From a virus: DNA of 24,432 nt. Numbering within the stretch: the stretch's first letter is position 1; each line of letters opens with the position of its first letter. The translations under genes were made by a program, and so were the position numbers. The notes beneath the pieces were generated by a model that was not told the origin of the DNA, ran no database searches, and worked only from the letters and a program-made list of their open reading frames with translations. This document shows, in pieces, positions 1 through 22,748 of this stretch. The stretch covers positions 1 to 24,432 of IMG/VR virus record IMGVR_UViG_3300019487_000094; one strand, 5' to 3'.

Positions 1-734
1 GCCCATGCGGCCCGTGCGGCCCGTGCGGCCCGTGCGGCCCGTGCGGCCCATGCGGCCCATGCGGCCCATGCGGCCCATGCGTCCCATGCGGCCCGTGCGG
101 CCCATGCGGCCCATGCGGCCCGTGCGTCCCATGCGGCCCGTGCGTCCCATGCGGCCCATGCGGCCCATGCGGCCCGTGCGGCCCGTGCGGCCCGTGCGGC
201 CTGACGTGCTTTTTCGATCAGGTCGGCCGCCGATATCCATTCCGCGTCAGATACGGTCCCGCCGTCTACCAGTCGCTGATAAAGCACACGAACACCGTTT
301 ACGGCTTCCTTGAGCGCCATGAAAGCCTCGCCATCCGGAAGTGCCGGAAGTTGTTTGTCGTCTTCTTGCATGAGCCAAACCATAAACTTCGGTATAACAA
401 GCGACAGGTCCGCGCCGGGTGGAATTGCCTCAAGAAAGGCAACAGCAAAATCTGGTCCATTCTTGCCTGGAAGTGCCTCGAAAATTGCATCTTCGAGATA
501 AGCCAGAGCGCGTGGGATGCCAAGCTCTGTTTCATAGACAGAGTGATCGGCTGTCGAAAACTCTTTTTTCATTCGGACGTTGTAGGAATTGATAGCACAC
601 CCTACGGCGCAACCCTTAAAACGCCCGTTCATCTTCCCGTAGGTTCCGTGGATGATGGAATCTGCTTTTCGGTGTGCCTTCATTTCCTCCACAATGCCCT
701 CTTTGAGCTTCTTGTCTGAATTGTATGCTTTCAT
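1..734 (-). CDS. Phage protein with Ala-Ala-Arg/Trp triplet repeats (3' end beyond window)
   Basis: Function unknown. The frame opens at ATG 734-732 behind a strong AAGGAG site that overlaps the stop of the preceding gene, and stays open to the window edge, giving at least 244 codons. Residues 1-175 or so are an ordinary globular-looking region beginning [13 protein letters not shown], with several Cys and Trp residues. It is followed by 22 tandem three-residue units (AAR, AAW, DAR or DAW). The repeats are codon-exact: W/R differ by TGG/CGG and A/D by GCC/GAC, with no frame breaks, so the frame is under coding constraint. From memory, phage proteins with similar Ala-Ala-Trp/Arg/Gly tails are common and uncharacterised. 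The tail is probably a long helix with Arg/Trp on one face. The gene is truncated here because the window ends. Confidence 0.85.
3..200 (-). repeat. 22 x 9-bp in-frame tandem repeat
   Basis: Twenty-two uninterrupted copies of a 9-bp unit, read on the minus strand as GCCGCA(C/T)GG with an occasional GAC in place of GCC. Copies differ only at two positions, both of which change an amino acid (R/W and A/D). The tract forms the C-terminal repeat of the gene that runs off the left edge of the window. Confidence 0.95.
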
Positions 735-2192: not shown

Positions 2193-2410
2193 TTTATCGT
2201 GATCACTCCCTTCCACTCGATGTTCAAAATCACGGGGAGATTGTTTTGATCTTCGAACGATGCCTTTGCCCACTCGTGAAATTTCGTCAGGCAGTCGTCG
2301 ATAGATTCCCCAAGTCCCCAAAGTGTCCGCTTGCTACCCGGCTCGTCGTTTGCCGTTCTGTAAGTGAACTCGTAGACCAGGTTCTGCCTCTCTATCTCAA
2401 CCTTCGACAT
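2189..2410 (-). CDS. Hypothetical protein, 73 aa
   Basis: Function unknown. ATG 2410-2408 sits inside the last 14 bases of the exonuclease gene and has GAAGGGG just upstream. The product looks like a small alpha/beta fold (YEFTYRTANDE, then GLGESIDDCLTKFHEWAKASF, then a final strand VILNIEWKGVITIK). The C-terminal stop overlaps the next ATG. The tight overlap with the exonuclease suggests co-expression in the recombination operon, but no function can be assigned. Confidence 0.7.
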   Translation of the reverse strand: MSKVEIERQNLVYEFTYRTANDEPGSKRTLWGLGESIDDCLTKFHEWAKASFEDQNNLPVILNIEWKGVITIK

Positions 2411-3398
2411 CGGCCCCTTCTTTCAGCTTCACGATTGTAGGCACCGTTTTGGGCTCGCCCTCTGTCGCATACTGCGCTTTAACTTCCTGCGGGATAGCAA
2501 AGATAACGTTCTTGTCTTTCCTGATCTTCACGGTGAAGTTGCCAATAAGATACTCCCCTTTTTCAAGCGCTTTGAAATGCGGCTTCAGCTTGTCCATGAT
2601 TTTTTCGTATTCCTTCGCGTTGTTCTTGACCAATTCGCGCCGCTCCAAGAGATCGATAATCTCGTCAGAAGTGAGGATGCTCATAGCGTCAAAATTCTGA
2701 TCTGGAAGGCAAATCGACTTGAACGGACAATACTGGCAAACATCACGATCAGCAATACGAGCAGGGTATTCGGCCAACTTAGCGCCAGCGTCTTTTACCT
2801 TGTCTATCTTTGAGATCAGAGCATTTATCTTTTCTAGGCGCTTCAGGATGCCTTCTGCATAGGCGTAATCAAGAGGCACCGCTAGCATTTTAAGCCGCCC
2901 CGTCTGCTTATTCTTCATGATAAGAACCCCAAGATCGGAATTGTCCATCATGAGATACATCTGCATCGTGTCGTAGTAGCCACGAACGTAATGGGCTCCG
3001 TCGTTTCGGAGATCATCAACGGTATTTATCTTCTCCCATTTGTGTTCGTTCATCGTCTTGACTTCAAGCGGGTATTTTTTCCCTTCTATCTCAATCTTTC
3101 CATCAATACGACCGGTAATCTGATGCTCACGCCAGCTAAAAGACCGTTGCGATTCCTCTATTTTAAAACCGGAGTCCTGCAACAAACGAATGACGGCTGG
3201 CTCATGGATATGTCCCTCTTGGAAAATATATATAGAGCCTAGATTTGGTTTTTCTTTTTCTTCCCAGTTGAGTCGAGAATAAACAAGGAAGCGGTCGCAT
3301 GGATGGCCTACGCTGCTAGCCCAGTTATTGTGTTGAGGGTAGACTTGTTGCTTAGTAAGCAAGTGCTGGTCAACGTCTTTTGTGATGTCTCGAATCAT
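2397..3398 (-). CDS. Cas4/RecB-like PD-(D/E)XK exonuclease with probable Fe-S cluster
   Basis: Predicted nuclease that resects DNA ends for phage recombination. At 333 residues it shows the PD-(D/E)XK core (D99 in GRIDGK, then E112-V-K114 in LEVKT) and a Gln-containing motif at about 146 (DTMQMY). Four Cys fit an iron-sulfur cluster as in Cas4 and AddB: C34 near the N-terminus, and C221, C224, C230 (CQYCPFKSIC). The frame opens upstream to GTG 3413, but ATG 3398-3396 has GGAG at 9-nt spacing and is chosen. The gene follows a probable annealing protein, the usual exonuclease-annealase pairing. Its translation start shares 16 bases with that of the leader ORF at 6851 and is complementary to the candidate small RNA at 6924-7032. 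Confidence 0.85.
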   Translation of the reverse strand: MIRDITKDVDQHLLTKQQVYPQHNNWASSVGHPCDRFLVYSRLNWEEKEKPNLGSIYIFQEGHIHEPAVIRLLQDSGFKIEESQRSFSWREHQITGRIDGKIEIEGKKYPLEVKTMNEHKWEKINTVDDLRNDGAHYVRGYYDTMQMYLMMDNSDLGVLIMKNKQTGRLKMLAVPLDYAYAEGILKRLEKINALISKIDKVKDAGAKLAEYPARIADRDVCQYCPFKSICLPDQNFDAMSILTSDEIIDLLERRELVKNNAKEYEKIMDKLKPHFKALEKGEYLIGNFTVKIRKDKNVIFAIPQEVKAQYATEGEPKTVPTIVKLKEGADVEG

Positions 3399-3411
3399 TT
3401 GGTCACTCTCC
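3396..3411 (-). promoter_or_regulatory. Exonuclease ribosome binding site, shared 16-nt element
   Basis: GGAGAGTGACCAAATG on the minus strand contains the Shine-Dalgarno and ATG of the exonuclease. The same 16 bases occur at 6849-6864, and the first 11 are complementary to the RNA read from 7000-6990. It is probably a regulated initiation site. Confidence 0.7.
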
Positions 3412-3433: not shown

Positions 3434-4270
3434 TTATCCGGCGCTTCCAGGTTCGTCTGCGCCATTTTGATCGACGGGCCCTCCCCTCTGAACCCACTTC
3501 ACGATCTCGTCGTAGTTTTTCTTCTCGATCTCTTTCGAAGAGTTGTATTTGTATTTGACGAAGATGTGCGCCTTAATCCGAGCGTCGCTTACGTTGTTCT
3601 CTTTGCAAATCGCCCAGAGACGCTTTGCCTGAGGGTCGCTGATCACGCCAGCCACACCTGCGGACTGGCCGCCGCCTTCTGCCCCGGCGTTGAATTCGTA
3701 ACCGGCGATCTTCTGCACGTCCACACCGTTCTTGATCAGATCAGCCTCGGTCATGTTCTTCAGGCCAAGCAATGTGCATATCGCCCTCGCTTCCCAGTTT
3801 GAGACGGCAGACTTTCGGACATCCATCGGGTCGGGTGTTCTGTTGTTGCTGGAAAAAAACCCGTCGGATGAGGAGCGCCCACCATCAATCTGCAAAGTAA
3901 TTGGCTGGCCGTAAAGGTTGTCCAAAACCGAAGACCCGACCTCGCCCTCGACAACGTAGGAATAGGTGCCGTTCTCACCCTGTTCTTTCGTGACCTGCCT
4001 GTTTCTGTAGTATATGCCCCAAATCGTGCGAACCTTCTGGGCTCCCGTAGCTTGCAGGTAGTAGGAAATCTTTCCTCCTTTGCTGGCGACCTTCATCCAG
4101 TCCTGAAAATTTGTTCTCTGAATTGAGACTTTTACCGCTCCGTCAATAGCGCGAGCAATAGCCCCGACACGAGACTCGACCTTCTGCGCATCAAGCGAAA
4201 CTTCGAGCGGGTTAACTTGCAGGTTGTCTTCGGCTTGCTGAATGACTTCTGGCAGTATTTTATTCGTCAT
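3434..4270 (-). CDS. Probable phage single-strand annealing / recombination protein
   Basis: Likely single-strand DNA annealing protein, 278 residues, that works with the exonuclease encoded immediately downstream. I recognise the general layout rather than a named family: a conserved core (AIARAIDG... then DPMDVRKSAVSNWEARAI and a short LLGLKNMT), a flexible Gly-rich linker near 195-207, and a C-terminal helical domain at about 208-262 (DPQAKRLWAICKENN... NYDEIVKWV). That end resembles those of many phage annealases. ATG 4270 has AGGGGATG at about 8-nt spacing and is preceded by a strong promoter at 4327-4355. It is the first gene of that transcript. ERF, RecT or Sak-type assignment cannot be settled by eye. 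Confidence 0.65.
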   Translation of the reverse strand: MTNKILPEVIQQAEDNLQVNPLEVSLDAQKVESRVGAIARAIDGAVKVSIQRTNFQDWMKVASKGGKISYYLQATGAQKVRTIWGIYYRNRQVTKEQGENGTYSYVVEGEVGSSVLDNLYGQPITLQIDGGRSSSDGFFSSNNRTPDPMDVRKSAVSNWEARAICTLLGLKNMTEADLIKNGVDVQKIAGYEFNAGAEGGGQSAGVAGVISDPQAKRLWAICKENNVSDARIKAHIFVKYKYNSSKEIEKKNYDEIVKWVQRGGPVDQNGADEPGSAG

Positions 4271-5980: not shown

Positions 5981-6111
5981 CTTAAGGCTTCCTCAGCTTT
6001 TTGCCTATACTCATGATTGTAAAAAGTCTCGTTTATTATTTTTTCCAGTAATTTCGAAAACTCTTTCTCTCGCATAATCTCATGAACAAGCTCATGATCG
6101 TCTTTTTGCAT
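5833..6111 (-). CDS. Possible small ORF between initiator and helicase, 92 aa
   Basis: Low-confidence gene. It runs from ATG 6111, just inside the initiator gene's end, and overlaps the first 148 bases of the helicase in another frame. Only its first 45 or so residues look coding: a helical stretch ending FYNHEYRQKAEEAL. The remaining half lies over the helicase gene and looks like out-of-frame translation. A single inserted base in the CCTTAAGG near 5983 would join this N-terminus to the helicase and give it an extra N-terminal segment. Upstream GAG gives a weak ribosome binding site. Confidence 0.35.
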   Translation of the reverse strand: MQKDDHELVHEIMREKEFSKLLEKIINETFYNHEYRQKAEEALRWTTNNIAVNERLLLIFRQMRLYPLQSESLSLGCQKSEGNQNSKQVWKW

Positions 6112-6808
6112 ACACACTCAAATCGAACGGTTGTGACGATGCCGTTGCCTTTGTTCTCGGCTTCTCGTTTAAATAGCTTTCGAATTTTGTTTTGTTGAAT
6201 AATGTCTCCGGTCTGAGATAGGGCCACATTTTTTCTTGTCCTTTCCATTGAGAGGATTTCAAATCAACGACGCTTTTGAGTTCGTCCACGGTTCGTCCTT
6301 CGGACATTCTAGCCATTATGAATTTTAAATTGGCCTCTGATTTCACAGAAAAGTTCTTGTCTGCCTTTTCGTTTAGGTAAGAGATGACGAGGGCCGCGGA
6401 GGCCCTATTCTTTTCTATTCTATTCTTTTCTATTAGGCGGGAGTCTTCCCCTACCAGTCCCCTACCATTCAAGGATAATTCCCGTAATGAAGGGGGAATT
6501 GGAAGAGATGAATTCCTCATTTTCTCTATGTATTGGTGTTTATTGAAGTTACGAATATACCCGTATTGAGAACCGCCCACATCATACCACTCAATCTTTT
6601 CCCCTAGATCATTTTTGATGGCAAGGAAGTTAAAAGTGTCCTCGTAAGGGAAAATTTGCGACTTTAGAAGCGCCGGGTGTGCTTTGAAACGCCCCTCATC
6701 ATCAGCGAAGTTCCAAAGACCTATGTAAAAAAGTCGAGTAATCGGAGACCACTTCGCAATCTGTTCATCGCTCCAAAATTCCGGGTCAATCATGCGCTTT
6801 CTGGGCAT
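6092..6808 (-). CDS. Phage replication initiator with conserved phage C-terminal domain
   Basis: Replication initiation protein of 238 residues. The N-terminus MPRKRMIDPEFW...AKWSP...RLFYIGLWNFADDEGR is the winged-helix start seen in phage initiators. Residues about 140-214 match the 'conserved phage C-terminus' pattern (YLNEKADKNF, ... ARMSEGRTVDEL, ... QWKGQEKMWPYLRPETLF ... KFESYLNE), the Phg_2220_C type. Between them is a low-complexity EKNRIEKNR linker, encoded by a 15-bp tandem DNA repeat. The ATG at 6808 has a weak own ribosome binding site and lies inside a 21-aa leader ORF with a strong one, so translational coupling is likely. The helicase loader role is inferred from its position before the DnaB-type gene. 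Confidence 0.85.
   Translation of the reverse strand: MPRKRMIDPEFWSDEQIAKWSPITRLFYIGLWNFADDEGRFKAHPALLKSQIFPYEDTFNFLAIKNDLGEKIEWYDVGGSQYGYIRNFNKHQYIEKMRNSSLPIPPSLRELSLNGRGLVGEDSRLIEKNRIEKNRASAALVISYLNEKADKNFSVKSEANLKFIMARMSEGRTVDELKSVVDLKSSQWKGQEKMWPYLRPETLFNKTKFESYLNEKPRTKATASSQPFDLSVYAKRRS
6390..6435 (-). repeat. Hairpin and two 15-bp tandem repeats inside the initiator gene
   Basis: AGGGCC/GGCCCT hairpin (loop GCGGA) at about 6390-6406, followed by two nearly identical 15-bp copies of TATTCTTTTCTATTC at 6406-6435. It encodes the EKNR linker of the initiator. Iterons inside initiator genes are origins in lambdoid phages, so an origin here is possible but not shown. Confidence 0.4.
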
Positions 6809-6851
6809 CAGTCCACCAAGACGCGTTAGATTTGCAATCGGATATATTCAT
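6786..6851 (-). CDS. Leader peptide ORF before the replication initiator, 21 aa
   Basis: Short ORF starting at ATG 6851-6849 with an ideal GGAG ribosome binding site at 9-nt spacing, coding MNISDCKSNASWWTDAQKAHD. It is in a different frame from the initiator, whose ATG (6808) lies inside it, and ends 20 bases beyond that ATG. Translating the leader would bring ribosomes across the initiator's weak start, so it likely couples the two. The Cys and paired Trp could give an attenuation-like response, but I see no evidence for that. No homology is recognised. Confidence 0.55.
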   Translation of the reverse strand: MNISDCKSNASWWTDAQKAHD

Positions 6852-6864
6852 TTGGTCACTCTCC
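6849..6864 (-). promoter_or_regulatory. Leader ribosome binding site, shared 16-nt element
   Basis: GGAGAGTGACCAAATG, identical to the exonuclease start at 3396-3411. Its first 11 bases are complementary to the RNA from 7000-6990, and one more adjacent base also pairs. It should control translation of the leader and, by coupling, the initiator. Confidence 0.7.
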
Positions 6865-6889
6865 TTTTTCAATTTAAATGAGCACAGAA

Positions 6890-6918
6890 GTTATAGCACG
6901 AAGCAAAAACATTGTCAA
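6890..6918 (-). promoter_or_regulatory. Sigma-70 promoter for the replication operon
   Basis: TTGACA at 6918-6913, 17-bp spacer, TATAAC at 6895-6890, with TG one base before the -10. Transcription should begin near 6883, upstream of the leader and initiator, and downstream of the terminator at 6924-6959. This is one of the two best promoters in the window. Confidence 0.88.
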
Positions 6919-6923
6919 TATAA

Positions 6924-6959
6924 ATAAAAACTGCCGTTCGGCGACCAACCGAACGGCAG
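6924..6959 (-). terminator. Rho-independent terminator
   Basis: A perfect 11-bp stem (CTGCCGTTCGG and its complement) with a 7-nt loop containing UUGGUC, followed by TTTTTATTT on the minus strand. It would end transcripts arriving from the late/lysis genes and from the promoter at 7039-7067, and it separates them from the replication promoter immediately downstream. Confidence 0.9.
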
Positions 6960-7032
6960 CCCGTTGTTAACCAATATAACAACGGCTTAGGAGAGTGACC
7001 TCGTAGCCCTGGACGGGCATGGAAGGCACTAC
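6924..7032 (-). ncRNA. Candidate phage small RNA antisense to two early ribosome binding sites
   Basis: The predicted transcript of about 109 nt starts near 7032, downstream of the promoter at 7039-7067. It ends at the terminator. It should fold as a short 5' hairpin (GUAG...CUAC, with CCC/GGG inside, 7032-7003), an unpaired stretch 7002-6986, a perfect 9-bp hairpin (6985-6961) and the 11-bp terminator hairpin (6959-6931). The unpaired stretch contains GGTCACTCTCC (7000-6990), the exact complement of GGAGAGTGACC in the exonuclease and leader start sites. The two 3' hairpin loops contain TTGGT and TTGGTC, complementary to the ACCAA/GACCAA before the AUG of both targets. No coding frame is convincing. 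This is a sequence-based prediction; expression is unknown. Confidence 0.6.
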
Positions 7033-7042
7033 TGCTACAGTA
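7030..7042. promoter_or_regulatory. Possible operator dyad at the small-RNA promoter
   Basis: A perfect dyad TACTG-CTA-CAGTA overlaps the -10 and start of the candidate small-RNA promoter. The half-sites match LexA arms, but the 3-bp spacer is far shorter than the LexA box. A phage repressor site is possible; nothing in the window binds it obviously. Confidence 0.3.
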
Positions 7043-7067
7043 TGCCCTGAACCCGTAAAAAAGTCAA
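7039..7067 (-). promoter_or_regulatory. Probable promoter of the candidate small RNA
   Basis: TTGACT at 7067-7062, 17-bp spacer, CATACT at 7044-7039. The -35 has 5 of 6 and the -10 has 4 of 6 consensus bases, including the key A2 and T6. It overlaps the last codons of the lipoprotein gene. It is weaker than the two other promoters in the window. Confidence 0.5.
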
Positions 7068-7291
7068 GCCATGCGCTTTGCGTCCTCAGCTGACGCATTC
7101 ATGACCTCGCTCAAGTAATACTCTGAGATAAACCATCCGTTTTCTTTCGCAGTGAAAGATTCCCCAGCTTGCATGGGCTGGATATCCTTCTCCTTAATCA
7201 TGTAAATCGGCTGTTTCTGTTGAAAAGTCGCGCAACCGCTAACGCTGGCGGCGTATGCGATTAAAAAAAGCAGTGATCTTAGACGGGTCAC
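7064..7291 (-). CDS. Outer-membrane-type lipoprotein of the lysis cassette, 75 aa
   Basis: Short lipoprotein. Residues 1-19 form a signal peptide and the lipobox VSGC puts the lipidated Cys at about 20. The mature part is only about 55 residues (IYMIKEKDIQPMQAGESFTAKENGWFISEYYLSEVMNASAED). From memory, phage lysis modules often carry such small lipoproteins with an 'I.P..AGE.FT...G.F.S..YL.EVM' pattern. It may be an outer spanin-like protein. Start is GTG 7291 with GGGG about 10 nt upstream. It overlaps the upstream 62-aa membrane protein gene by 53 bases in another frame, an arrangement like Rz/Rz1, although both proteins are shorter than usual spanins. Confidence 0.75.
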   Translation of the reverse strand: MTRLRSLLFLIAYAASVSGCATFQQKQPIYMIKEKDIQPMQAGESFTAKENGWFISEYYLSEVMNASAEDAKRMA

Positions 7292-7427
7292 GTTCTGATA
7301 GCCCCTTCTTTCCTTCTGCTTCCGTCGCTTTTATACTCTCACGCCTCTCGCGGTTCTTTCGATGAAAGAACCTCAATGCCAGTCCAATGACCCCTATCAG
7401 ACCAGCTATGACTCCCCAGAATTCCAC
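7239..7427 (-). CDS. Small membrane protein, 62 aa, overlapping the lipoprotein
   Basis: The N-terminal membrane segment (VIAGLIGVIGLALRFF, about residues 5-20) is followed by a strongly charged tail (HRKNRERRESIKATEAEGKK). The type II topology with a basic soluble tail is spanin-like, but at 62 residues it is too short to span the periplasm by itself. Start is GTG 7427 shortly after the holin-like gene's stop; the ribosome binding site is weak. Its 3' end overlaps the lipoprotein gene in a different frame. Confidence 0.6.
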   Translation of the reverse strand: MEFWGVIAGLIGVIGLALRFFHRKNRERRESIKATEAEGKKGLSERDPSKITAFFNRIRRQR

Positions 7428-7439
7428 TGAGGTATAATC

Positions 7440-7616
7440 CTACTTTTTTGCGATGGCGTGCCTAAGCGTTGCAAAAACCCCAATCATCGCCTCAGACTGA
7501 AGGAACGTCCAGAACTTCGCCAAGTCAAACCCGTCTTGGACAACACCGGACAAATACCCAGAAAGCGCACCAACGGCTGCCAAAGCAACCAAGATGTACG
7601 TTTTTTTCCCATTCAT
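7440..7616 (-). CDS. Holin-like small membrane protein, 58 aa
   Basis: One hydrophobic N-terminal segment (YILVALAAVGALSGYLSGVV, about residues 7-26) and a second moderately hydrophobic stretch (MIGVFATLRHAIAKK). The ending 'LRHAI.KK' is common in small phage holin-like proteins, from memory. Start chosen at ATG 7616 because AGGGAGG lies 9 nt upstream; an upstream TTG at 7625 is in frame. It lies in the lysis cassette. Holin function is inferred from size, membrane segments and position only. Confidence 0.65.
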   Translation of the reverse strand: MNGKKTYILVALAAVGALSGYLSGVVQDGFDLAKFWTFLQSEAMIGVFATLRHAIAKK

Positions 7617-12006: not shown

Positions 12007-12494
12007 GAACCGCTCTCCCTTCGCTCTATAGATAAGTCGTTTCCACTCTTTGTAATCCTCCAAGAGCCATTGGTTCCTTGGTCTCCGAAGTAAACAGTAT
12101 CATTGGTGGCTAGACCTAAATTAATCACAGCCCCGGCTGCCGTGGTTGCGCCAGTACCACCTTGATCGATTGACACAGGAATGTTTATCTGTTTCTGCAC
12201 GGGGAGGTTGAACTTGACCATCTCCTTGTTCAGCTCATCCCTGACAGAGCTCCCAACCGTATTCTCGTATCTTTGAGCTCGCTTTTCAAAGGACATGTGT
12301 TCCAGAGATAGTTTTGCCTCAATGCTCTCCGAGACGCTAAGGATGAAACGGCGCAGCTCTGCAATGTCATCCTTAGACACAAAGCGCTGCTCCTTGATAG
12401 CATCTACCCTTTGTGATGCACCGTCATTGCTTGATAGCCTCTCGCGGCGACGCTGCTTCTGAAACTGTTGCATCATCTCTTCTCGGCTAGCCAT
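11973..12494 (-). CDS. Coiled-coil tail fibre attachment protein, 173 aa
   Basis: Structural protein. The N-terminal ~90 residues are charged and helical (a coiled coil with many Gln, Arg and Glu), then comes the fibre motif IDQGGTGATTAAGAVINLGL near 110, and a beta-rich end (TVYFGDQGTNGSWRITKSGN). The GGTGATTA motif is common at joints of phage fibres. ATG 12494 overlaps the previous stop as TAATG. It likely connects a fibre to the tail, but no specific family is recognised. Confidence 0.65.
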   Translation of the reverse strand: MASREEMMQQFQKQRRRERLSSNDGASQRVDAIKEQRFVSKDDIAELRRFILSVSESIEAKLSLEHMSFEKRAQRYENTVGSSVRDELNKEMVKFNLPVQKQINIPVSIDQGGTGATTAAGAVINLGLATNDTVYFGDQGTNGSWRITKSGNDLSIERRESGSWVQKSLILAS

Positions 12495-14107
12495 TATTTT
12501 CTCCGTGAAATTTTCTTGACATGAGCCTTAGTCTCCATTGACCCTATACCTTGGTTATGGACTCGCAGGCTGGGTTTGACTTCATACCAGCCAGTGTGAG
12601 AGCGCCCGATGAGCTGGTTGTTAAGAGCTTCTTTCTCCTTCTTATCAAACTTCAGTACTGATTTTCTATGCCCTCTAAAAGGAATTTCAAAATTTTCTAT
12701 AAACTTTTCTAAGCGCAACCGAGCTATGGATTCTTCTGGTGACACCATCTCAAAGCCCTGGCCAGCAGGAAGTAATTTCTGATGAGGTATATTGGCTGGC
12801 CCAGGAAGCGTGGCTAGATCATCCGGCCCAAGGATTTCACGGAAATACTGAGAATTCGGCTCAAGCAGCCTGGGCGCTTGCTTTAGTCTTGAGCGAACCA
12901 ACGCCTCTGATGCTTTTTTATTTAGCCTCTCAATTTCACCTGTCATTCTCGAAACCGATTGTTTTATAATTGGTATCTCTCGCACAGCCGCCGCAGTCAC
13001 CGAACGCATTGAAGGTCTTCCCGCTATCTGTGTAGCGACTCGTTGCGCTATATTCCCATGCTCCAAAGTAGTCTCTACGAGCTTAGCGGCGGCTTTCTTG
13101 CCGCTTTCAAGGCCATACCAACGACTGTTGAGCTTGTGGATATCTGGGTGGGTCTGCTCTACAATCTCTTTATAGGCTTGTGCGAAAGCGTCGTCTGCGA
13201 TGCCTTGTTCTGGGGCGGTTACAATCTGCAGGCCTTTACGCTGACGCTTTTGAATACCCTCGGTGCGATCGTAAAGAAACTTCTTGCGGTTGTGGGCCTT
13301 TATGGTATCCATGCCACGCTGCTCGTTTATCCATCGCCACTCATCTGCGAAAGCCTTTGCTAGCTTCTTACGTTCAGCTGGGTTCGAGTTCTTAATTTGT
13401 TTAAGAAGAATAAGTCTGGCCCTTGTCATCACATACTCAGGGCTTATCTCCTTCACATTCTGTTTGACTAGACTCTCAATCTGGCCCACAACTACATCTT
13501 GCTCGTTTCTGAACTTGTCTACAATATGCTGAGGTTTTGAGGTTTTTTTAATAATTTGTGATCCCTCAACGAGGGCGCTAACGGGCCTATTAGCTTCCAC
13601 GTCTGTCGCTACATCCAAGGCTGGAAGTAGCCTTGAGGTAACAGCCCGGCCCTTAGTGGAAGCTTGATGATAGATGAGACGGTCTAGCGCACCGCTCTTT
13701 GAGGCCGCAAACTTCCTTGCGATGTTGGAGCCTGTGAGCAGCCCCTCCGCTGCCCCACTAGCCGTTCCAACCACAGGGGTCAAATATCCAGCCAGGGCGC
13801 GTGGGTCTATCGCTGAGCCAGCGAGGAAGGAGGCGACGCTGTTTGGGTTTACGTCCACTCCAAACACATTTGCGTTAGGCGTGCTTGGGACACCAAACGC
13901 GTCCACGGCCTTCCTGCCAAGGTTCATGCTCTCGGCTGAGGCTCGCTTTATAAGGTCGCTTTCCAAGCCAGGAGAGTACTCGGAGGCGGTCGCCCCGACC
14001 ATGGAACGGCCAACGCCCTTTAGGGTGTCAATGACTGAACCCTTGACTATTTCCCGCGCCGATTGGCGCTGTTTAGCTTCTTGAAATAAACCCTTGACTA
14101 TGGCCAT
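12494..14107 (-). CDS. Large ejection-type internal virion protein, 537 aa
   Basis: Candidate internal head protein that is ejected with the DNA, as P22 gp16 is. Position supports this: it is the third and largest in a run of 287, 356 and 537 residues following the adaptor, hub and needle-like genes. The N-terminal third has Gly/Ala-rich amphipathic stretches (VASFLAGSAIDP, LTPVVGTASGAAEG) that could contact membranes, and the rest is helical and basic. No lytic transglycosylase motif was seen. ATG 14107 shares a base with the upstream TGA (TGATG). Confidence 0.6.
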   Translation of the reverse strand: MAIVKGLFQEAKQRQSAREIVKGSVIDTLKGVGRSMVGATASEYSPGLESDLIKRASAESMNLGRKAVDAFGVPSTPNANVFGVDVNPNSVASFLAGSAIDPRALAGYLTPVVGTASGAAEGLLTGSNIARKFAASKSGALDRLIYHQASTKGRAVTSRLLPALDVATDVEANRPVSALVEGSQIIKKTSKPQHIVDKFRNEQDVVVGQIESLVKQNVKEISPEYVMTRARLILLKQIKNSNPAERKKLAKAFADEWRWINEQRGMDTIKAHNRKKFLYDRTEGIQKRQRKGLQIVTAPEQGIADDAFAQAYKEIVEQTHPDIHKLNSRWYGLESGKKAAAKLVETTLEHGNIAQRVATQIAGRPSMRSVTAAAVREIPIIKQSVSRMTGEIERLNKKASEALVRSRLKQAPRLLEPNSQYFREILGPDDLATLPGPANIPHQKLLPAGQGFEMVSPEESIARLRLEKFIENFEIPFRGHRKSVLKFDKKEKEALNNQLIGRSHTGWYEVKPSLRVHNQGIGSMETKAHVKKISRRK

Positions 14108-15177
14108 CAGTCTAGCAAGTCCTGTTCCCGCATCGCTTCAATGACCTCCCTGCGCGTTTTATTGTAGTATTTCATGCTGTCTTGAATGTCTCGCTCCACG
14201 GCTGGGGTGAATCTTTCACTGGATGCGTCGTCGTCAAAATTCTCTGCCTCTTTCTCAACCTCCGAGAGTGGCGTGATGAACTGGCCGTTCTCATCTACAG
14301 TATACTGCCCAGCCGCTACCAACTTCTCACGGGCAGAGGCCATGCGCATCAGCTTCTTGAACTTCTTTTCTCTAACCTTACCGCCCTCATCACTATCCCA
14401 AAGAAGTGGAAGCGCTCTGCTCTTTGCGTCGTTGTCGGACAAGCGCTTGTCCCCCGTAAGCGTCCTGTAAAGACCTACTGCTGCGGCTGGCCTAGAGTCA
14501 TTATAAGTTACAAGCTCCGCATTGGTCTCTCCACGAGTGAAGAAATTTACAATATTCTGCCAGATTGCCCCATAACCAGAAGGCAGCTTTTTAGCGTCGT
14601 CCTTCATCTGAGTGAGCAAAGATTTTGCATTTTTAGCCTCTATCAGGTCGGCTTGTTGCTGAGCACCTGGAACCTTCTTCTTCAGGCTCTGCTCCTGCTC
14701 CTGCTGAATAAGCTTATTCTTCGCCTCTTGTTGGAGCCCCTTACTGGTTGGCTTTCCAGTGAACAAGTCAATCTCAGGGGCTTCAATGCCTGAAAGAGGA
14801 CCGGCTTCCTCTGGTTTTGCAGGTGTCGTATCTAACAACGGGTCAGCCTGATTGCCGACAGAGGATGTGCCTGTAACATCTTCATAAAGCTGGCGATTGC
14901 CCATGAGTTTAGCGGCCTCTGCCACCTTGCTGCGTTCGATTAGCTTTTCAAGATCAGTCTTGAGAGACTCATCTCGAACGATAGACCCGTCTGGTCCAAT
15001 CTTAAGTCCATGCCCAGCCGCTGTAACATTCAAAGCCAGCTGTTGCATCATGGTATCATTCGCCTGCTTTCGGGCCTCTGTGAAGGTCTGCAAGGCTGTA
15101 GGGATGGCCAAGATATCTTTCATCTCATCCGCATCCTTCTGTCTTTTATACGCTAAAACGTCAGAAAGAACCCCCAT
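14107..15177 (-). CDS. Ejection-type internal virion protein, 356 aa
   Basis: Second of three consecutive internal virion candidates. It is helical, Gln/Lys/Ala-rich, with a long Lys/Gln/Glu-rich segment at about 145-200 (KNKLIQQEQEQSLKKK). A more conserved core follows near 205-275 (GAIWQNIVNFFTRGETNAEL, SRPAAAVGLYRTLTGDK). No signal peptide. Start ATG 15177 overlaps the upstream TAA. It occupies the place of P22 gp20; sequence alone does not prove homology. Confidence 0.6.
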   Translation of the reverse strand: MGVLSDVLAYKRQKDADEMKDILAIPTALQTFTEARKQANDTMMQQLALNVTAAGHGLKIGPDGSIVRDESLKTDLEKLIERSKVAEAAKLMGNRQLYEDVTGTSSVGNQADPLLDTTPAKPEEAGPLSGIEAPEIDLFTGKPTSKGLQQEAKNKLIQQEQEQSLKKKVPGAQQQADLIEAKNAKSLLTQMKDDAKKLPSGYGAIWQNIVNFFTRGETNAELVTYNDSRPAAAVGLYRTLTGDKRLSDNDAKSRALPLLWDSDEGGKVREKKFKKLMRMASAREKLVAAGQYTVDENGQFITPLSEVEKEAENFDDDASSERFTPAVERDIQDSMKYYNKTRREVIEAMREQDLLD

Positions 15178-16040
15178 TAATAATTCTCCCAGAAGCCGCC
15201 GCGCCTGCCTAAGCCGCCTACCAAGCGAAGGTTGTCATTAATTACCTCGCCGCTGTTAACGTTGCTTAGGGTAAACGGGTTTGTTTGTACAACCGGCTTT
15301 GGCTGAGATAGCCTAGCGCCAGCTAACCCTGCCCCAGATTGCATTATGGCCCCTCCAGTTCCTGAAGGCCCAAGCCCACCGGCTAAAGCCCCTAAACCGG
15401 TCAATCCTCCGGTCACTGCAAGCGACGCACCGCCTGTGAATGGCGCAAGGGCAAGCCCGGCCATTAATCCACCAGCCCCTCCTGTCAACGCACCCAAAAG
15501 ACCCCCCTTGCTGTCCTTCTGTCCTGCTAGCACCTTGGCTACCTGGTTCTCATAATTCGCAAGGTTAAACTCATTCTGCTGGCCTTGGTTTGTAAGGGCA
15601 AGGCTTCCCGCGTTTGAGGTCGAGTTTACGCCAAGCCCAGCAAGGGTTAGTCTTGCGCCAAGAGCTCGTTCAATGTCAGAGGCGGCCATGCCAAGACCTG
15701 CTGATGTTATCTGCGAGAGATAGTCGCTTTCAAGGTCAGCCAGCGTAGAGGCTGTCGTCGAACCAGTGAGTTGGTTATTCGCTTCTAGGTCAGCAATTAT
15801 CCGCTTACGAGAATCCCTGAGCTCTGGGAGGAGCATACTGGATGCGGCATTGATTGCATTGCGGGTAGCCTCTGGAGAGGTGCTAACCGCCTCCTGCATG
15901 TAAGGAGTCAATCCATAGCCTGTCGTGTAGGCTGAACCTATGCTCAGCCCGTTACGGATAGCCTCGGCCACACCTGGGTCTTGGTAAAACATCGGTGGAG
16001 GAGGCAGCTCTACTGATTTCTTGCTACTAAAAAGTCCCAT
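15177..16040 (-). CDS. Ejection-type protein with Gly/Ala-rich membrane segment, 287 aa
   Basis: First of the three internal virion candidates, in the place of P22 gp7. An N-terminal polar region (ELPPPPMFYQDPGVAEAIRNGL), a helical middle, then a Gly/Ala-rich hydrophobic tract at about 180-245 (GGLLGALTGGAGGLMAGLAL, TGGLTGLGALAGGLG) that could insert into a membrane during DNA delivery. ATG 16040 follows GAGGAG. The neighbouring adaptor and hub genes give the best argument for an ejection role. Confidence 0.65.
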   Translation of the reverse strand: MGLFSSKKSVELPPPPMFYQDPGVAEAIRNGLSIGSAYTTGYGLTPYMQEAVSTSPEATRNAINAASSMLLPELRDSRKRIIADLEANNQLTGSTTASTLADLESDYLSQITSAGLGMAASDIERALGARLTLAGLGVNSTSNAGSLALTNQGQQNEFNLANYENQVAKVLAGQKDSKGGLLGALTGGAGGLMAGLALAPFTGGASLAVTGGLTGLGALAGGLGPSGTGGAIMQSGAGLAGARLSQPKPVVQTNPFTLSNVNSGEVINDNLRLVGGLGRRGGFWENY

Positions 16041-16054
16041 CTAAAATCTCCTCA

Positions 16055-16318
16055 TTATTTTGCGGTCCATCCAGTTGCCCCATCACCGGACTCTTTGACA
16101 TAAATTGTGCTGGACGCACCACCGTCGGTGCGCATGTAAATTGATCCAACACCAGCGGCAACTGCGCCCTCGGGCGAGCCTACGCCCGAGAATATTCTGC
16201 GCGTCTCAGCGTCCCCGGCGACGTTGTCAAAAAGCTTCTTCATCATTCGGTTGAGCTCTGATAGCCCCTCGGCTGTTTTCAGCTTTTCAGGCGTTAGCTC
16301 AACGTAGCCCTCAGCCAT
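16055..16318 (-). CDS. Small tail/virion protein with GSPEG motif, 87 aa
   Basis: The C-terminal part (GVGSPEGAVAAGVGSIYMRTDGGASSTIYVKESG...GW) is a small beta domain seen at the ends of many phage fibre and needle proteins ('GSPEG...GS.Y.RTDGG..TTLYVKE'). The N-terminal ~40 residues are helical. ATG 16318 overlaps the TAA of the 412-aa gene (TAATG). It probably makes part of the tail tip or a fibre trimerisation unit. Exact function unknown. Confidence 0.7.
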   Translation of the reverse strand: MAEGYVELTPEKLKTAEGLSELNRMMKKLFDNVAGDAETRRIFSGVGSPEGAVAAGVGSIYMRTDGGASSTIYVKESGDGATGWTAK

Positions 16319-17556
16319 TAGGTAAGCTGCGCCGGAATCTCTTCGACCCGGATGTATGAATTCATCACGCCTCCAAGAAGCCTCGCGCCTCCGGTGCCAT
16401 TCATGGTCGTGGTGGAACCAGTCGTACCACCAACCCTGACCTTAAAAGTTGTTAGCGAGGTTGTCCCTGCCTTCATGACATGGCTTAATCCAATCTGATG
16501 GACAAATGTCCCGCCTGAGAAGCTGGCCTGCACAGCGCTCAGCGCGCCAGCCGTAGAGTCCTGAAATAACCCCATGATCATCGGCATATTGTCTGTCGAG
16601 TGGTCACCCACAAATCGTATATCTATCCTCAGCTTGTTATTAACGTTGGTTGGCACAAAGTTGAGCGACAAGAATTGATCACCTTCGGTGTTCTGAGGGA
16701 TGGTGTCGTCTGAGACCATCGCCGTGGTGCCGGTTGCAACGGCTCCTGTCTGATACTCCACGAAGTTACGGACACCCACGTCCAATATGTTAGACACACC
16801 GTATGTATCAAGCTCGCCAGAACCGGTGCCGTTCATGCGGAACCATCCAAGATAACGATACACGGTCCCTGAAACGGTGGCATAACGCTTTGTGTTGTTT
16901 GCGGCTGTGATAGAGACGGCGTAATCCGCGTGTGTCGGAGCGGTCGTTGTCATCTTAATGTTGCCGCTAGCGTCAATAATGACATACCCTGTTGTGTTGG
17001 TCGCTTGCTGAGATACGCCACCGGCCCAGTTACCAGAGGTAGTCAATGTAAGAGTGGTGTTTGATGTCTTAGAAACATTTGAAGCGTTAATCACAACACT
17101 TCCTGGGCCCACGGTCATTGTAGTGGTGCTTGCCTGCATGACGTTCATCTCTGATCTAAATTCTGGGGCAACGTTAACTGCGGCCCACTCAGGAGCGGTA
17201 GCCCCAGAGTTCATGCGAAGAACTTGAAGGGCTGTCCCCTTAGCTAACCTTGCCCATGCAGAGGATGAACTTGCATAAATAACATCACCTGCCGCCTGTG
17301 AAGCGATTGTGAGCCCTGAGTTCAGAGGTATTTTCGGACCGTCATTGGTGGTCCCTGAGTGATCATGCCCGGTAGAGGCGTGCAAGGAGTCATTAAAATA
17401 CGTGTGAAGCAGGTCTAGCTGGGCTTCCAGGTCAGCGTCTGTGAGAACCTCCGTGCCCCAGTCTTTAGAACGAGCACTCAGCGAAGGCCACGCCGCCCAA
17501 GCGACAGAGCCTATAAGCAATGCAGAGATTGTTAGAATAGCGAGCTTTCTTTTCAT
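16318..17556 (-). CDS. Fibre/needle-like protein with Sec signal peptide, 412 aa
   Basis: Signal peptide at residues 1-21 (MKRKLAILTISALLIGSVAWA). The mature protein starts with a helical stretch and HDHSGTTNDGPKI, a motif common in phage fibres. Then comes AAGDVIYASSSSAWARLAKG, another fibre motif, followed by long beta-rich Thr/Ser/Asn segments. It sits right after the gp10-like hub gene, where P22 carries its tail needle. ATG 17556 has AAGGAGG at 4-nt spacing. The signal peptide is unusual for a virion protein. Confidence 0.75.
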   Translation of the reverse strand: MKRKLAILTISALLIGSVAWAAWPSLSARSKDWGTEVLTDADLEAQLDLLHTYFNDSLHASTGHDHSGTTNDGPKIPLNSGLTIASQAAGDVIYASSSSAWARLAKGTALQVLRMNSGATAPEWAAVNVAPEFRSEMNVMQASTTTMTVGPGSVVINASNVSKTSNTTLTLTTSGNWAGGVSQQATNTTGYVIIDASGNIKMTTTAPTHADYAVSITAANNTKRYATVSGTVYRYLGWFRMNGTGSGELDTYGVSNILDVGVRNFVEYQTGAVATGTTAMVSDDTIPQNTEGDQFLSLNFVPTNVNNKLRIDIRFVGDHSTDNMPMIMGLFQDSTAGALSAVQASFSGGTFVHQIGLSHVMKAGTTSLTTFKVRVGGTTGSTTTMNGTGGARLLGGVMNSYIRVEEIPAQLT

Positions 17557-17565
17557 CACTCCTCC

Positions 17566-19146
17566 TTATGCCTCTTCCAAAGCCAAAGCCACGATCTTTA
17601 TCTTCTTTATGCGTGGACGTGTTGACGTTCCGCTGTTTGAAATGGTGAACTGAACACGTCTTCCAACTGCACCGTTAGGGAACGGATACACCACGGTGCG
17701 GTCCTGTGGGGTCGATGTTATCGACGATGTGTTCAAGATGAAGGTTGTGTTAAGCAAAGCTCCGGCAGCTGTAAGGTCTATGGTCTTTGTTCCTGAATGA
17801 AGACCGCGGTCCATGTCCCACAGCACGCTCACGGAGCCTGTCGTGCCGTGGAACGTCACGATCATTTTAATAAGCTTAAGGCGCACATCGTCTATGCCAA
17901 ACTCCCCGCCACTTGCAATGGCGAAGTCGCGTGAGGAAAAGACCTTCGTCTTGTAGACAGCCTGGGTGGCTTGGCCCTCATCGGAATTGTCATCCGTCTC
18001 TAGTTCGTAGCACTTGTCCTTCTGAGATGAGGCGGCATAAATATTGTTAAACCCAAACCTAAGGAGCGCAGGGTATCCAAAGTTGTCGGATAGCGCGGTA
18101 TTCACCGGCCGGTTCATCCACCGGCCTAGCGTGGCATCATAAATTCTCATCTTGTTAGGATAGGACACAGCGCTGTCAATATCGGAGTAGATGAGATAAT
18201 ACCGCCTGTTGCGATAGATGCCGTAAACACGCTTGGAAAGATCGATCTTGTCGATAAAAACATCCCTGTTGAAGTATGTCAACTCCTTGGGTGAGTTTAC
18301 TCCATCATAAACGAAGATGCCCTTCGTCGGCCAATCGGACATGAAATAGACTCCCTCATCACCAAGTGCGATAGAGTACGGCGCACAGCAATTGCGAAAC
18401 GGGTTTCCAAGAGGCCTGAAGGCCGTGTTCGGAAAGTTATAGATGGCATACCCGCCTCTATTTGTGAAAACCAGCGTCTCATTACCGCTTGGGAAGTTCG
18501 GCTGACAGCCTCTCGTGTCCTCAGGCAGGTCGATGCTAGAGGCATCGTTAGAAAGACTCCAAGCGTCGGATGCGACCCAGTTGCCCACCCCGGCGCGGCA
18601 GATGTAAACCCTGCGTGGAAAGTCGCTTGAGCCTTCAGCAATCAAGCGAGTCTTATGCCCATAAATTCGAGCACAGTTCGAGGCTGGAACAGAGGATGGC
18701 GTAGCGATGGCGACCCCGACAGTCTTGCGCTTTAGGCCATCAGAAACATTGGTCATCCACAGGCCCTCACCAGCCGAAACCCCGTGAGTCAACACACCAG
18801 ACGTGAAGGCGGCAGCATCGTCCTGCGTAAGAACAGCCCCGACGAATTTTACCAGGTCGCCCTCGATGACTGCGTATAACTCCGTGCCGCCTGAGTCCTT
18901 ATGTTGAATAAGAAGGTCTGGCTGTAAGGTGTAACCGACTCCTCCGTCTCCTACCTCGTTGAAGCCACGGGCGCGTATCATGCCTCCAAGGGAGAGGGCG
19001 TCCCAGTTGTCAACCTGGCGACCCTCCTCGGTCTTCATGGCCTGGTCCTCGGAGATGGTGTTCTCCCCTCCGGCGAAGCTTAAGAGCTCTAACGCCAGCT
19101 CTACATGTTCCTGCTTATCCAACACGCGAGCAGTTTGTAGTCCCAT
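17566..19146 (-). CDS. P22 gp10-like tail hub / DNA stabilisation protein, 526 aa
   Basis: Probable tail hub that plugs the portal and holds the packaged DNA. Length fits the gp10 family (about 470-530). The sequence has repeated blade-like phrases with Trp, Tyr and Gly: GNETLVFTNRGGYAIYNFPN, GDEGVYFMSDWPTKGIFVYD, RRYYLIYSDID, LLRFGFNNIYAAS. These suggest a beta-propeller. It follows the adaptor gene exactly as gp10 follows gp4 in P22. The start ATG at 19146 overlaps the upstream TGA (TGATG); GTG 19149 is an alternative. C-terminal beta-sandwich region from about 400. Confidence 0.75.
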   Translation of the reverse strand: MGLQTARVLDKQEHVELALELLSFAGGENTISEDQAMKTEEGRQVDNWDALSLGGMIRARGFNEVGDGGVGYTLQPDLLIQHKDSGGTELYAVIEGDLVKFVGAVLTQDDAAAFTSGVLTHGVSAGEGLWMTNVSDGLKRKTVGVAIATPSSVPASNCARIYGHKTRLIAEGSSDFPRRVYICRAGVGNWVASDAWSLSNDASSIDLPEDTRGCQPNFPSGNETLVFTNRGGYAIYNFPNTAFRPLGNPFRNCCAPYSIALGDEGVYFMSDWPTKGIFVYDGVNSPKELTYFNRDVFIDKIDLSKRVYGIYRNRRYYLIYSDIDSAVSYPNKMRIYDATLGRWMNRPVNTALSDNFGYPALLRFGFNNIYAASSQKDKCYELETDDNSDEGQATQAVYKTKVFSSRDFAIASGGEFGIDDVRLKLIKMIVTFHGTTGSVSVLWDMDRGLHSGTKTIDLTAAGALLNTTFILNTSSITSTPQDRTVVYPFPNGAVGRRVQFTISNSGTSTRPRIKKIKIVALALEEA

Positions 19147-19826
19147 CACATCAGGCTATAATCATAGCCTCCTCCAATAAGATCGTCTGCTCCCATGACA
19201 AGATTAACGTCTGGCACGGCGTACTGCTTGCTCATGTAAAGCCGCTCTGCGTATGCCTTGGCATCTCGGACGATGGTCAAGAACCGTTGGTAGTAGGTGT
19301 TGGAAATTTCGTTCTTCCCAACCTGCCTTAAAAGCTCAGAGGCGGCGTAGTAGACCGGCCCCTCGCGGTACTCCTCAGGAAGAATTCCAGTGTCTGAGTC
19401 ATCGCTAAGCTCAGTGTCTGGTTTCTTGAAGTAATACAGCGCGTAGGCAGCGCCCGTCACTGAGCCAAGAAGCTTGATGTAACGAGCCCCGCTCTCTTCT
19501 GAGATGTAGTAAACAGGGATCGCCCCACCGTAGTTGTAGAACCTCTCATAATCCTCTATTGAGATTTCGCGCTGACGAGTAATGACATAGTTGCTGACGA
19601 TAAGAACGTGTATCTGCAGGCAGTCTGAAGGCAGGGCTATCTGGTTAGATGATACGGTTCCCGTGGACTTTGCCCTGACAAGCATCGCCTCCCTGCAAAA
19701 CTGCATCTCACCCCTGTTCAGCTCCTTTTTGCGGCTGGCCAGAGGGAACTGGTCCGTCGTGCCTGTGTTGTCATCACCGAGCAGTGAACTTAACTTGGAT
19801 TGCATGTTGAGAAACGTGTAGCTCAT
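19146..19826 (-). CDS. Tail adaptor protein (P22 gp4-like), 226 aa
   Basis: Head-tail adaptor that binds the portal ring. The pattern SYTFLNMQSKLSSLLGDDN, ... RKKELNRGEMQFCREA, ... LPSDCLQIHVLIV, ... EYREGPVYYAASELLRQ and a C-terminal helical arm is the usual layout of phage adaptor proteins. The frame extends to 19874, but ATG 19826, overlapping the glycosyltransferase stop as ATGA, is the better start. It is followed by the hub gene. Together they are the strongest evidence for a P22-type tail. Confidence 0.8.
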   Translation of the reverse strand: MSYTFLNMQSKLSSLLGDDNTGTTDQFPLASRKKELNRGEMQFCREAMLVRAKSTGTVSSNQIALPSDCLQIHVLIVSNYVITRQREISIEDYERFYNYGGAIPVYYISEESGARYIKLLGSVTGAAYALYYFKKPDTELSDDSDTGILPEEYREGPVYYAASELLRQVGKNEISNTYYQRFLTIVRDAKAYAERLYMSKQYAVPDVNLVMGADDLIGGGYDYSLM

Positions 19827-20965
19827 GCTGTTACCAGCTCTCCCTTCATAGCCCTTGAGAACGCCTCCGGCCACATGTGAGACTTGGTGTTGATGTTGTG
19901 GTTCGTAAACACCTCGTTCCTCGCCGCGCGGGCAAGGCGCTCACGGCGGTACTTGTCAATTACTAGCTCCTCGATGGCCTGTACCCATGAACGGGTGTCG
20001 CTAGCAGCAAGCAGGCCTGTTGATCCGTTTGAGATAACAGAAGAGTACGGCACCATGTCGCTTGCCACCGTAGCGGCCGACAACACCGAATACTCAAGCC
20101 ACTTGATCGCTGACTTGTTCCTGTTAAAACGGTTGTCAACCAAAGGACACAGGCCAATATCCAGGTTTAAGCTGAAAATCTTGTAGGGATAAGCAACGTG
20201 CGGAACCCAGGCGTGGTATTCCATCTGATTCTGTGGGGCATCCTTAAAAAGACCCATGAAACGCAGGTCGCCGGAGTAGACGAACTTTAAGTTCTTGTGG
20301 CGGCGCAAAACATCAATGATGGCCGGTCTGACCAAGTATAGGTCCTCGTAGTGTGATGCCCCGCCCTGCCAACCCATGCGAACTTCACTCTTGACAAACT
20401 CCTGTCCACGTGGATAGAACTCAGGGTCAATAAAGTTAGGGAGCACGGCAACATTTGGGTTGATGGTAAGGAACTCCTCCCGCAGCTCTGGTGTGGTGCA
20501 GGTCACAAGGTCTGCCTTCTTGAAGTTCAGCCTGAACATGTCACGGAAATGGATGTTTGCGTCGATGTTAAAAATCTTCTTGCCGGTTGGCGAGACCATC
20601 TCCTCATGCCACAGCTTCTCAGTTGTCCCATCCTCCCACTGGAAGTTCCACGGCTCAATGCCGACGTATTGATAATATGGGTTTAGAGGGCTCGTGTTAA
20701 ACGGGTCGTCATCATAATCGGTAACGACCACCTTCCCGATCTTCCGACACATCTTGATGAACTCAAACCAGGCCTTGGTAGATGGTCTTGCAAAGAAGAT
20801 TACATCCGACATCACGGCAAGGTTTGGTGCGTTCTTCTCTCCAAGCTCGCTCTCCTTAATGAAATAAACCTCGGCGTGGCCATGCTCTAAAGCCTTAAGA
20901 AGTGGCAGGCGTACACGGTAGTAGTTTGTCGCAAGCTGATCTCGCTCGATGGCCATAATCCTCAT
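19823..20965 (-). CDS. GT4-type glycosyltransferase, 380 aa
   Basis: Predicted GT-B fold glycosyltransferase that moves a sugar from a nucleotide-sugar to an acceptor, probably in surface glycan modification. The N-terminal domain reads RIMAIERDQLATNYYRVRLPL. The C-terminal donor domain contains GWQGG at 198-202, the stretch CPLVDNRFNRNKSAIKWLEYS at about 273-293 with K284, S285 and the key Glu 291, and GSTGLLA at about 314-320. Those match GT4 proteins. ATG 20965 overlaps the upstream TGA and has GGAG 9 nt away. It is the last gene of the glyco block, next to the tail adaptor. Confidence 0.85.
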   Translation of the reverse strand: MRIMAIERDQLATNYYRVRLPLLKALEHGHAEVYFIKESELGEKNAPNLAVMSDVIFFARPSTKAWFEFIKMCRKIGKVVVTDYDDDPFNTSPLNPYYQYVGIEPWNFQWEDGTTEKLWHEEMVSPTGKKIFNIDANIHFRDMFRLNFKKADLVTCTTPELREEFLTINPNVAVLPNFIDPEFYPRGQEFVKSEVRMGWQGGASHYEDLYLVRPAIIDVLRRHKNLKFVYSGDLRFMGLFKDAPQNQMEYHAWVPHVAYPYKIFSLNLDIGLCPLVDNRFNRNKSAIKWLEYSVLSAATVASDMVPYSSVISNGSTGLLAASDTRSWVQAIEELVIDKYRRERLARAARNEVFTNHNINTKSHMWPEAFSRAMKGELVTA

Positions 20966-22208: not shown

Positions 22209-22216
22209 CTGTCTCC

Positions 22217-22744: not shown

Positions 22745-22748
22745 CTTA

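What the first reader, a model, noticed from the sequence alone, without database searches (positions are those of the whole stretch)
6924..7032. A candidate phage small RNA complementary to the ribosome binding sites of two early genes
Between the lysis and replication operons lies a compact minus-strand unit: promoter (TTGACT-17-CATACT), 5' hairpin, unpaired segment, 9-bp hairpin, 11-bp terminator hairpin, U tract. The unpaired segment holds GGTCACTCTCC, which is perfectly complementary to GGAGAGTGACC at both the leader/initiator start (6854-6864) and the exonuclease start (3401-3411). By base arithmetic, a given 11-mer is expected about 0.01 times on both strands of this window, yet it lands exactly on two ribosome binding sites. 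The initiator promoter starts transcription downstream of this element, so the RNA would act in trans (or on read-through transcripts). It could switch off DNA replication and recombination genes once late transcription arrives. I know of no described RNA of this design.
Basis: partly seen in the sequence, partly recalled or inferred. Interest (0 to 1): 0.9.

Follow-up and report, generated by a model that had tools for sequence, protein, structure and literature searches.

The report
Candidate phage antisense RNA, c4/IsrK-like
A phage carries, just after its lysis genes, a short RNA that ends in a transcription terminator and holds 11 letters exactly complementary to the ribosome-docking sites of two of its replication and recombination genes; it may hold those genes silent in the way a few known phage RNAs do, but this rests on one genome and is untested.

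Summary
GGTCACTCTCC (7000-6990, minus strand) is perfectly antisense to GGAGAGTGACC at two ribosome-binding sites (RBSs): a 21-aa leader ORF overlapping the initiator gene (6864-6854) and the Cas4-like exonuclease gene (3411-3401). The region ends in a strong terminator. Shuffled versions of the RNA never matched two RBSs over 11 nt (0 of 3000). Three details fail: the anti-RBS is not unpaired in the predicted 109-111-nt RNA; the promoter is weak and of a kind found at chance density; and another start (7625) is predicted to bind the RNA more strongly than either target.

I add a second reading. In any RNA that reads through the terminator, the anti-RBS pairs with the leader RBS in cis (predicted probability about 1). 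Transcripts from the strong promoter 3' of the terminator cannot form this lock. The layout (RNA, terminator, short ORF overlapping the regulated gene) resembles Gifsy-1 IsrK-orf45-anrP and phage P1 c4-icd-ant, so the design is not unprecedented. It matches no Rfam family.

No close relative of this early module was found, so covariation could not be tested. Best reading: a c4/IsrK-like antisense element, probability about 0.45. Trans-silencing of the exonuclease is less likely, and chance remains possible.

The parts
7039..7067 (-). weak promoter-like site TTGACT-17-CATACT (predicted start about 7033); it overlaps the stop codon of the last lysis-region ORF (7064-7291)
   Evidence: 9 of 12; 5 found in the 6.5-kb region against 7.3 in shuffles
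6992..7033 (-). 5' hairpin of the short RNA; its 5' arm pairs with most of the anti-RBS segment
6990..7000 (-). anti-RBS segment GGTCACTCTCC
6961..6985 (-). 9-bp hairpin CCGUUGUUA...UAACAACGG
6920..6960 (-). intrinsic terminator: 13-bp stem (6960-6930), 5-nt loop, TTTTTATTT tract; also the likely end of the lysis-operon transcript
6890..6918 (-). strong promoter TTGACA-17-TATAAC for the leader/initiator operon, 3' of the terminator; its transcript lacks the anti-RBS
   Evidence: read directly (11 of 12 to consensus; the scan requires T at position 6 and so skips it)
6854..6864 (-). target 1: RBS GGAGAGTGACC of the leader ORF (12-nt complement with the preceding A)
   Evidence: cis pairing probability about 1 in read-through RNA
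6786..6851 (-). 21-aa leader ORF MNISDCKSNASWWTDAQKAHD, overlapping the initiator start by 23 nt (translational coupling inferred)
   Evidence: sequence; no Pfam match
6092..6808 (-). replication initiation protein (Phg_2220_C domain)
3401..3411 (-). target 2: RBS GGAGAGTGACC of the exonuclease gene
2397..3398 (-). Cas4-like (PD-(D/E)XK) exonuclease

Best explanation
A c4/IsrK-like base-pairing control element. Transcripts that enter from the lysis operon, or from the weak promoter at 7067-7039, mostly stop at the terminator at 6960-6920 and leave a short RNA of about 110 nt or a 3'-UTR fragment. RNAs that read through fold so that the anti-RBS (7000-6990) covers the leader RBS (6864-6854), keeping the leader and the overlapping, probably coupled, initiator untranslated. 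Only transcripts from the strong promoter downstream of the terminator have a free leader RBS. The released short RNA may also bind the same sequence in trans at the leader RBS and the exonuclease RBS and lower early-gene translation when upstream transcription is high. Shown from sequence: the complementarities, terminator, promoter positions and overlapping ORFs. Predicted: the cis lock. Inferred: that transcripts exist, translational coupling, trans action and timing.
For: Exact 11/12-nt antisense to two RBSs and nowhere else in the window. No shuffle of the RNA reaches a two-target 11-nt match (0 of 3000). No other repeated 10-nt RBS sequence in the window has an antisense copy. In read-through RNAs starting at 7033, 7100, 7300 or 7500 the eleven pairs have probability 0.98-1.0, and holding the segment open costs 15.7 kcal/mol. 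Only 1 of 400 shuffles of the upstream region gives a helix of 11 at this RBS, and the next best of 34 other starts in the window has 7. The short RNA folds far better than shuffles (z -6.8). Predicted binding in trans: exonuclease -15.0, leader -12.0 kcal/mol; 0 of 300 shuffles matched both, 3 of 300 matched the sum. The layout parallels IsrK-orf45-anrP.
Against: A single genome: no close relative of the early module was found, so no covariation. The relative with about 69% identical tail proteins has a different early module and no such element. Two phage loci with exonucleases 37% identical lack it. The 9-nt version of the pattern is common. The cis helix, rare for one gene (1 in 400), is less striking over some 35 genes (roughly 0.09 expected per window). 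The anti-RBS is mostly folded away in the short RNA. The 7625 start is the top predicted target. The promoter is no better than chance.
Confidence: 0.45

Rival explanations
1. Plain terminator. The region is the 3' UTR and terminator of the lysis operon, and the 11-nt match is coincidence; the two RBSs are alike because both are strong Shine-Dalgarno sites.
For: The last lysis-region ORF stops at 7064, just upstream. The own promoter is weak. Weaker versions of the pattern are frequent. The 17-nt RBS sequence also sits at a gene start in an unrelated phage contig without any antisense copy.
Against: A two-target 11-nt match was not reached in 3000 shuffles. The match falls in a terminated intergenic RNA 125 nt from one target and forms the predicted dominant pairing of the read-through RNA.
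Confidence: 0.4
2. Cis lock only (a sub-case of the best explanation). The anti-RBS serves to block leader/initiator translation on RNAs that read through from the lysis operon; the exonuclease match is incidental and no trans-acting RNA works.
For: Cis pairing probability is about 1, whereas in the short RNA the segment is hidden. Read-through locks of this kind are documented for Bacillus sigG and T4 late and homing-endonuclease genes.
Against: It leaves the exonuclease RBS match, 17 nt shared with the leader RBS, as a coincidence.
Confidence: 0.25
3. A translational repressor protein, or the initiator itself, recognises the shared 17-nt RBS sequence, and the third copy is incidental.
For: The two RBSs share more (17 nt) than the antisense covers (11 nt). 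T4 RegA is a precedent for one protein acting on many RBSs.
Against: Does not explain the inverted copy inside the terminated RNA; no RegA-like protein was looked for or seen.
Confidence: 0.08
4. DNA-level binding sites (iterons or operators), two on one strand and one inverted.
For: Three copies, two of them within 150 bp just upstream of the initiator gene.
Against: Two copies sit at the same distance from start codons, and one lies inside an operon 3.4 kb away.
Confidence: 0.05

Closest known systems
IsrK / orf45 / anrP of Gifsy-1 prophage (PMC4825925)
   Same: Phage-encoded short RNA ending at a terminator, directly upstream and co-directional with a short ORF whose translation feeds the next gene; the read-through RNA pairs its sRNA part with the downstream region and is translationally silent.
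   Different: In IsrK the cis helix involves the 3' part of orf45 rather than its Shine-Dalgarno site, and the short RNA activates translation in trans; the product is an antirepressor-like protein. Here the pairing covers the RBS itself, a separate promoter lies 3' of the terminator, the gene encodes a replication initiator, and there is a possible second target.
c4 antisense RNA of phages P1 and P7 (RF01695) with icd-ant
   Same: Co-directional antisense RNA made just upstream of its target and blocking synthesis of the downstream protein in trans (that icd is translationally coupled to ant, and the site detail, are from my own knowledge).
   Different: No Rfam c4 match; one complementary segment seen rather than two; an intrinsic terminator instead of processing; the target is an initiator, not an antirepressor.
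CI RNA with seqA/seqC of phage P4 (as described in PMC4825925)
   Same: Phage antisense RNA from the leader of an operon that keeps the phage's own replication genes off.
   Different: P4 CI acts by premature transcription termination, not on an RBS; no match here to any Rfam family.
Read-through RBS locks: Bacillus sigG, T4 I-TevI, soc and e (PMC5942855, PMC2988022)
   Same: RNA from an upstream promoter folds over the RBS; RNA from the gene's own promoter cannot.
   Different: Those are cis only. Here the upstream arm lies before a terminator, so a free RNA carrying it could also act in trans.

Membership tests
c4 antisense RNA (RF01695) | match to the Rfam covariance model | tested here: not met
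   no match at the gathering score, nor at E up to 5 in 6750-7150
c4 antisense RNA (RF01695) | RNA co-directional with and just upstream of its target operon | tested here: met
c4 antisense RNA (RF01695) | two segments complementary to target sites including the RBS (definition from my own knowledge) | tested here: not met
   only one exact segment of 11-12 nt found
c4 antisense RNA (RF01695) | trans-acting repression shown | not testable with these tools
   needs an experiment
IsrK-type dual sRNA/mRNA | short RNA ended by an intrinsic terminator, with a short ORF next downstream and the regulated gene after it | tested here: met
   for the window; for IsrK
IsrK-type dual sRNA/mRNA | read-through RNA silenced by cis pairing of the sRNA part | tested here: inconclusive
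   predicted with probability about 1; silencing not measured; the paired element differs (RBS here)
IsrK-type dual sRNA/mRNA | sequence or structure match to an isrK family model | tested here: not met
   no Rfam family matched the window at its gathering score
read-through RBS lock (sigG, T4 late genes) | upstream arm present only in RNA from an upstream promoter, absent from RNA of the gene's own promoter | tested here: met
   anti-RBS at 7000-6990, own promoter at 6918-6890; folding; both promoters inferred from sequence
trans-encoded regulatory sRNA | predicted targets rank at the top among all gene starts | tested here: inconclusive
   2nd and 4th of 40; the 7625 start ranks 1st
trans-encoded regulatory sRNA | conservation or covariation of seed and targets | not testable with these tools
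   no close relatives found

The most novel reading that the evidence does not exclude
One phage RNA, released at the end of the lysis operon, uses a single anti-RBS segment both as a cis lock on read-through initiator mRNA and as a trans silencer of two separate early genes (replication initiator and recombination exonuclease), forming an RNA-based late-to-early feedback switch.
Probability: 0.2. Interest if true: 0.65.

Novelty: new variant of a known kind. Interest (0 to 1): 0.42.

Why it matters
Phage-encoded base-pairing RNAs with known targets are few. If real, this would extend c4/IsrK-type control from antirepressors to a replication initiator, add a second target in recombination, and show how a phage with lysis and replication genes on one strand stops late read-through from re-starting early translation. 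It also gives a simple rule for searching other phages: an anti-RBS just before a terminator that precedes an early operon.

Tried and rejected
Rfam scans of the window (gathering), the element (E up to 5) and nine related loci: nothing. Relatives of the exonuclease in viral contigs and in genome contigs: none confirmed. Relatives of the 3434-4270 protein in viral contigs and phages: none. Relatives of the 527-aa protein 17566-19149: one phage in three contigs, with another early module. Helicase relative L063 (43% identical): early region examined, no shared RBS with antisense copy. Blastn of the region against phages: one irrelevant hit. The 17-nt RBS in viral contigs: one unrelated phage. 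The gapped pair search used 95-124 nt, one base short of the window's 125-nt gap; it would still have found relatives with shorter spacing and found none. The plain duplex energies ignore internal structure and were discarded for the ensemble energies. Pfam search of the leader peptide: nothing.

Full report
WHAT WAS CLAIMED AND WHAT IS THERE. The window is a 24,432-base viral record with its tail/structural-type, lysis and replication/recombination genes on the minus strand. Between the last lysis-region ORF (stop at 7064) and the replication genes lies the finding. The exact 11-mer GGAGAGTGACC occurs at 6854-6864(-) and 3401-3411(-), and its reverse complement at 7000-6990(-), nowhere else. 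Both sense copies are ribosome-binding sites: the first serves a 21-aa leader ORF at 6851-6786 that overlaps the initiator ORF (6808-6092) by 23 nt; the second serves the exonuclease at 3398. The initiator is a phage replication initiation protein with a Phg_2220_C domain, and the exonuclease is of the Cas4-domain type. The first 125 residues of the initiator align from residue 1 of a PHROG profile, which supports the 6808 start.

CORRECTIONS TO THE DETAILS. The terminator stem has 13 pairs. The antisense is 11 nt to the exonuclease and 12 nt to the leader; the two RBSs share 17 nt. The promoter TTGACT-17-CATACT scores 9 of 12, and such sites are not enriched in the region (5 found, 7.3 expected). 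The segment described as unpaired is mostly paired with the 5' arm in RNAs starting at 7034 or 7032; opening all 11 nt costs about 9.4 kcal/mol (7034 start), and only the last few bases are free. A start at 7028 would free CUCUCC, so accessibility depends on the exact 5' end.

IS IT MORE THAN CHANCE. Dinucleotide shuffles of the RNA never reached an 11-nt match to two RBSs (0 of 3000; 3 reached 10 nt). Repeated RBS sequences of 10 nt occur about ten times in the window, and only this one has an antisense copy. In all fetched sequence the same pattern at 9 nt occurs 45 times, this one included, many with unlikely start codons; so 9 nt would mean nothing, while 11 nt with two well-supported RBSs in a terminated intergenic RNA is unusual. 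I judge the window-level chance at around one in a thousand, before allowing for the unknown number of windows the first stage has read.

PAIRING STRENGTH. With internal structure included, the RNA binds the exonuclease start at -15.0 kcal/mol and the leader start at -11.8 to -12.0. These rank 2nd and 4th of 40 starts. The best is the 7625 start (-16.4); 17559 is third. Of 600 random minus-strand windows none reaches the exonuclease value. Shuffles that keep the terminator match both values together in 0 of 300 and their sum in 3 of 300. Trans binding is plausible but not cleanly specific.

THE CIS READING. Folding RNAs that start anywhere from 7033 to 7500 and pass the terminator gives the 7000-6990: 6854-6864 helix with probability 0.98-1.0 at every pair; keeping the segment open costs 15.7 kcal/mol. 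The two hairpins between the arms shorten the effective loop (inference from the fold). In shuffles of the upstream region 1 of 400 gives a helix of 11 at this RBS, and among 34 other starts in the window the longest is 7; over some 35 genes this alone would be expected about 0.09 times. RNA from the strong promoter TTGACA-17-TATAAC (6918-6890) starts after the anti-RBS and cannot form the lock; its leader RBS is only moderately structured. So the same segment could act in cis on read-through RNA and in trans as a released RNA.

RELATIVES. No close relative of the early module was found. Three contigs of one phage share the tail-region genes (up to 69% identity), but its early region is different and has no repeated RBS with antisense. 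Two loci with exonucleases about 37% identical (L043, L048) lack the feature. Initiator relatives have other upstream regions. The covariation test that would settle the matter could therefore not be run.

COMPARISON WITH KNOWN SYSTEMS. The nearest in layout is IsrK of Gifsy-1 prophage: sRNA, terminator, orf45, anrP; read-through RNA is translationally silent because its IsrK part pairs downstream, and orf45 translation is coupled to anrP. There the short RNA activates; here the pairing covers the RBS, so repression is expected. P1 c4 is the nearest in expected action: a co-directional upstream antisense RNA that stops synthesis of the downstream proteins (detail on its two segments from my own knowledge). 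P4 CI RNA keeps the phage's replication genes off by termination. Read-through RBS locks are documented for sigG and T4 late and homing genes. The window matches no Rfam family, so I do not file it as a member of any of these; it works like them if it works at all.

VERDICT. A real and improbable complementarity, best read as a c4/IsrK-like control element (about 0.45), with plain coincidence nearly as likely. Trans-silencing of the exonuclease is the most novel part and the least supported.

Noticed in passing
L005 6640-6790; L007, L008, L012, L018 upstream of the initiator: Leaders before related initiator genes show two interleaved complementarities (a-b-a'-b', pseudoknot-like) ending in a terminator with a TTTTATTTT-type tail, often over a short ORF; fold z-scores -1.9 to -4.0, no Rfam match. 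Possibly an undescribed attenuator.
   Followed up: partly
L005 and L006, 6645-6655 and 6740-6750: The leader-ORF RBS GGTGAGGAAAG has an exact 11-nt complement downstream, just before the terminator: a possible parallel to the window's element in reverse order.
   Followed up: partly
L064 3696-3712: The window's 17-nt RBS GGAGAGTGACCAAATGA occurs at a gene start in an unrelated phage contig without an antisense copy.
   Followed up: yes
window 7625 and 7925 starts: Two lysis-region starts share AAAAGGGAGG at their RBSs; the 7625 start is the best predicted target of the short RNA.
   Followed up: partly
window 5-210: Repetitive ORF encoding runs of (M/V)RP at the left end of the record, perhaps a repeat or an assembly end.
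   Followed up: no
window 12494-24388 against G003 (L058, L059): Tail-region genes are shared with another phage (up to 69% identity) while most of the early region differs: modular exchange.
   Followed up: partly
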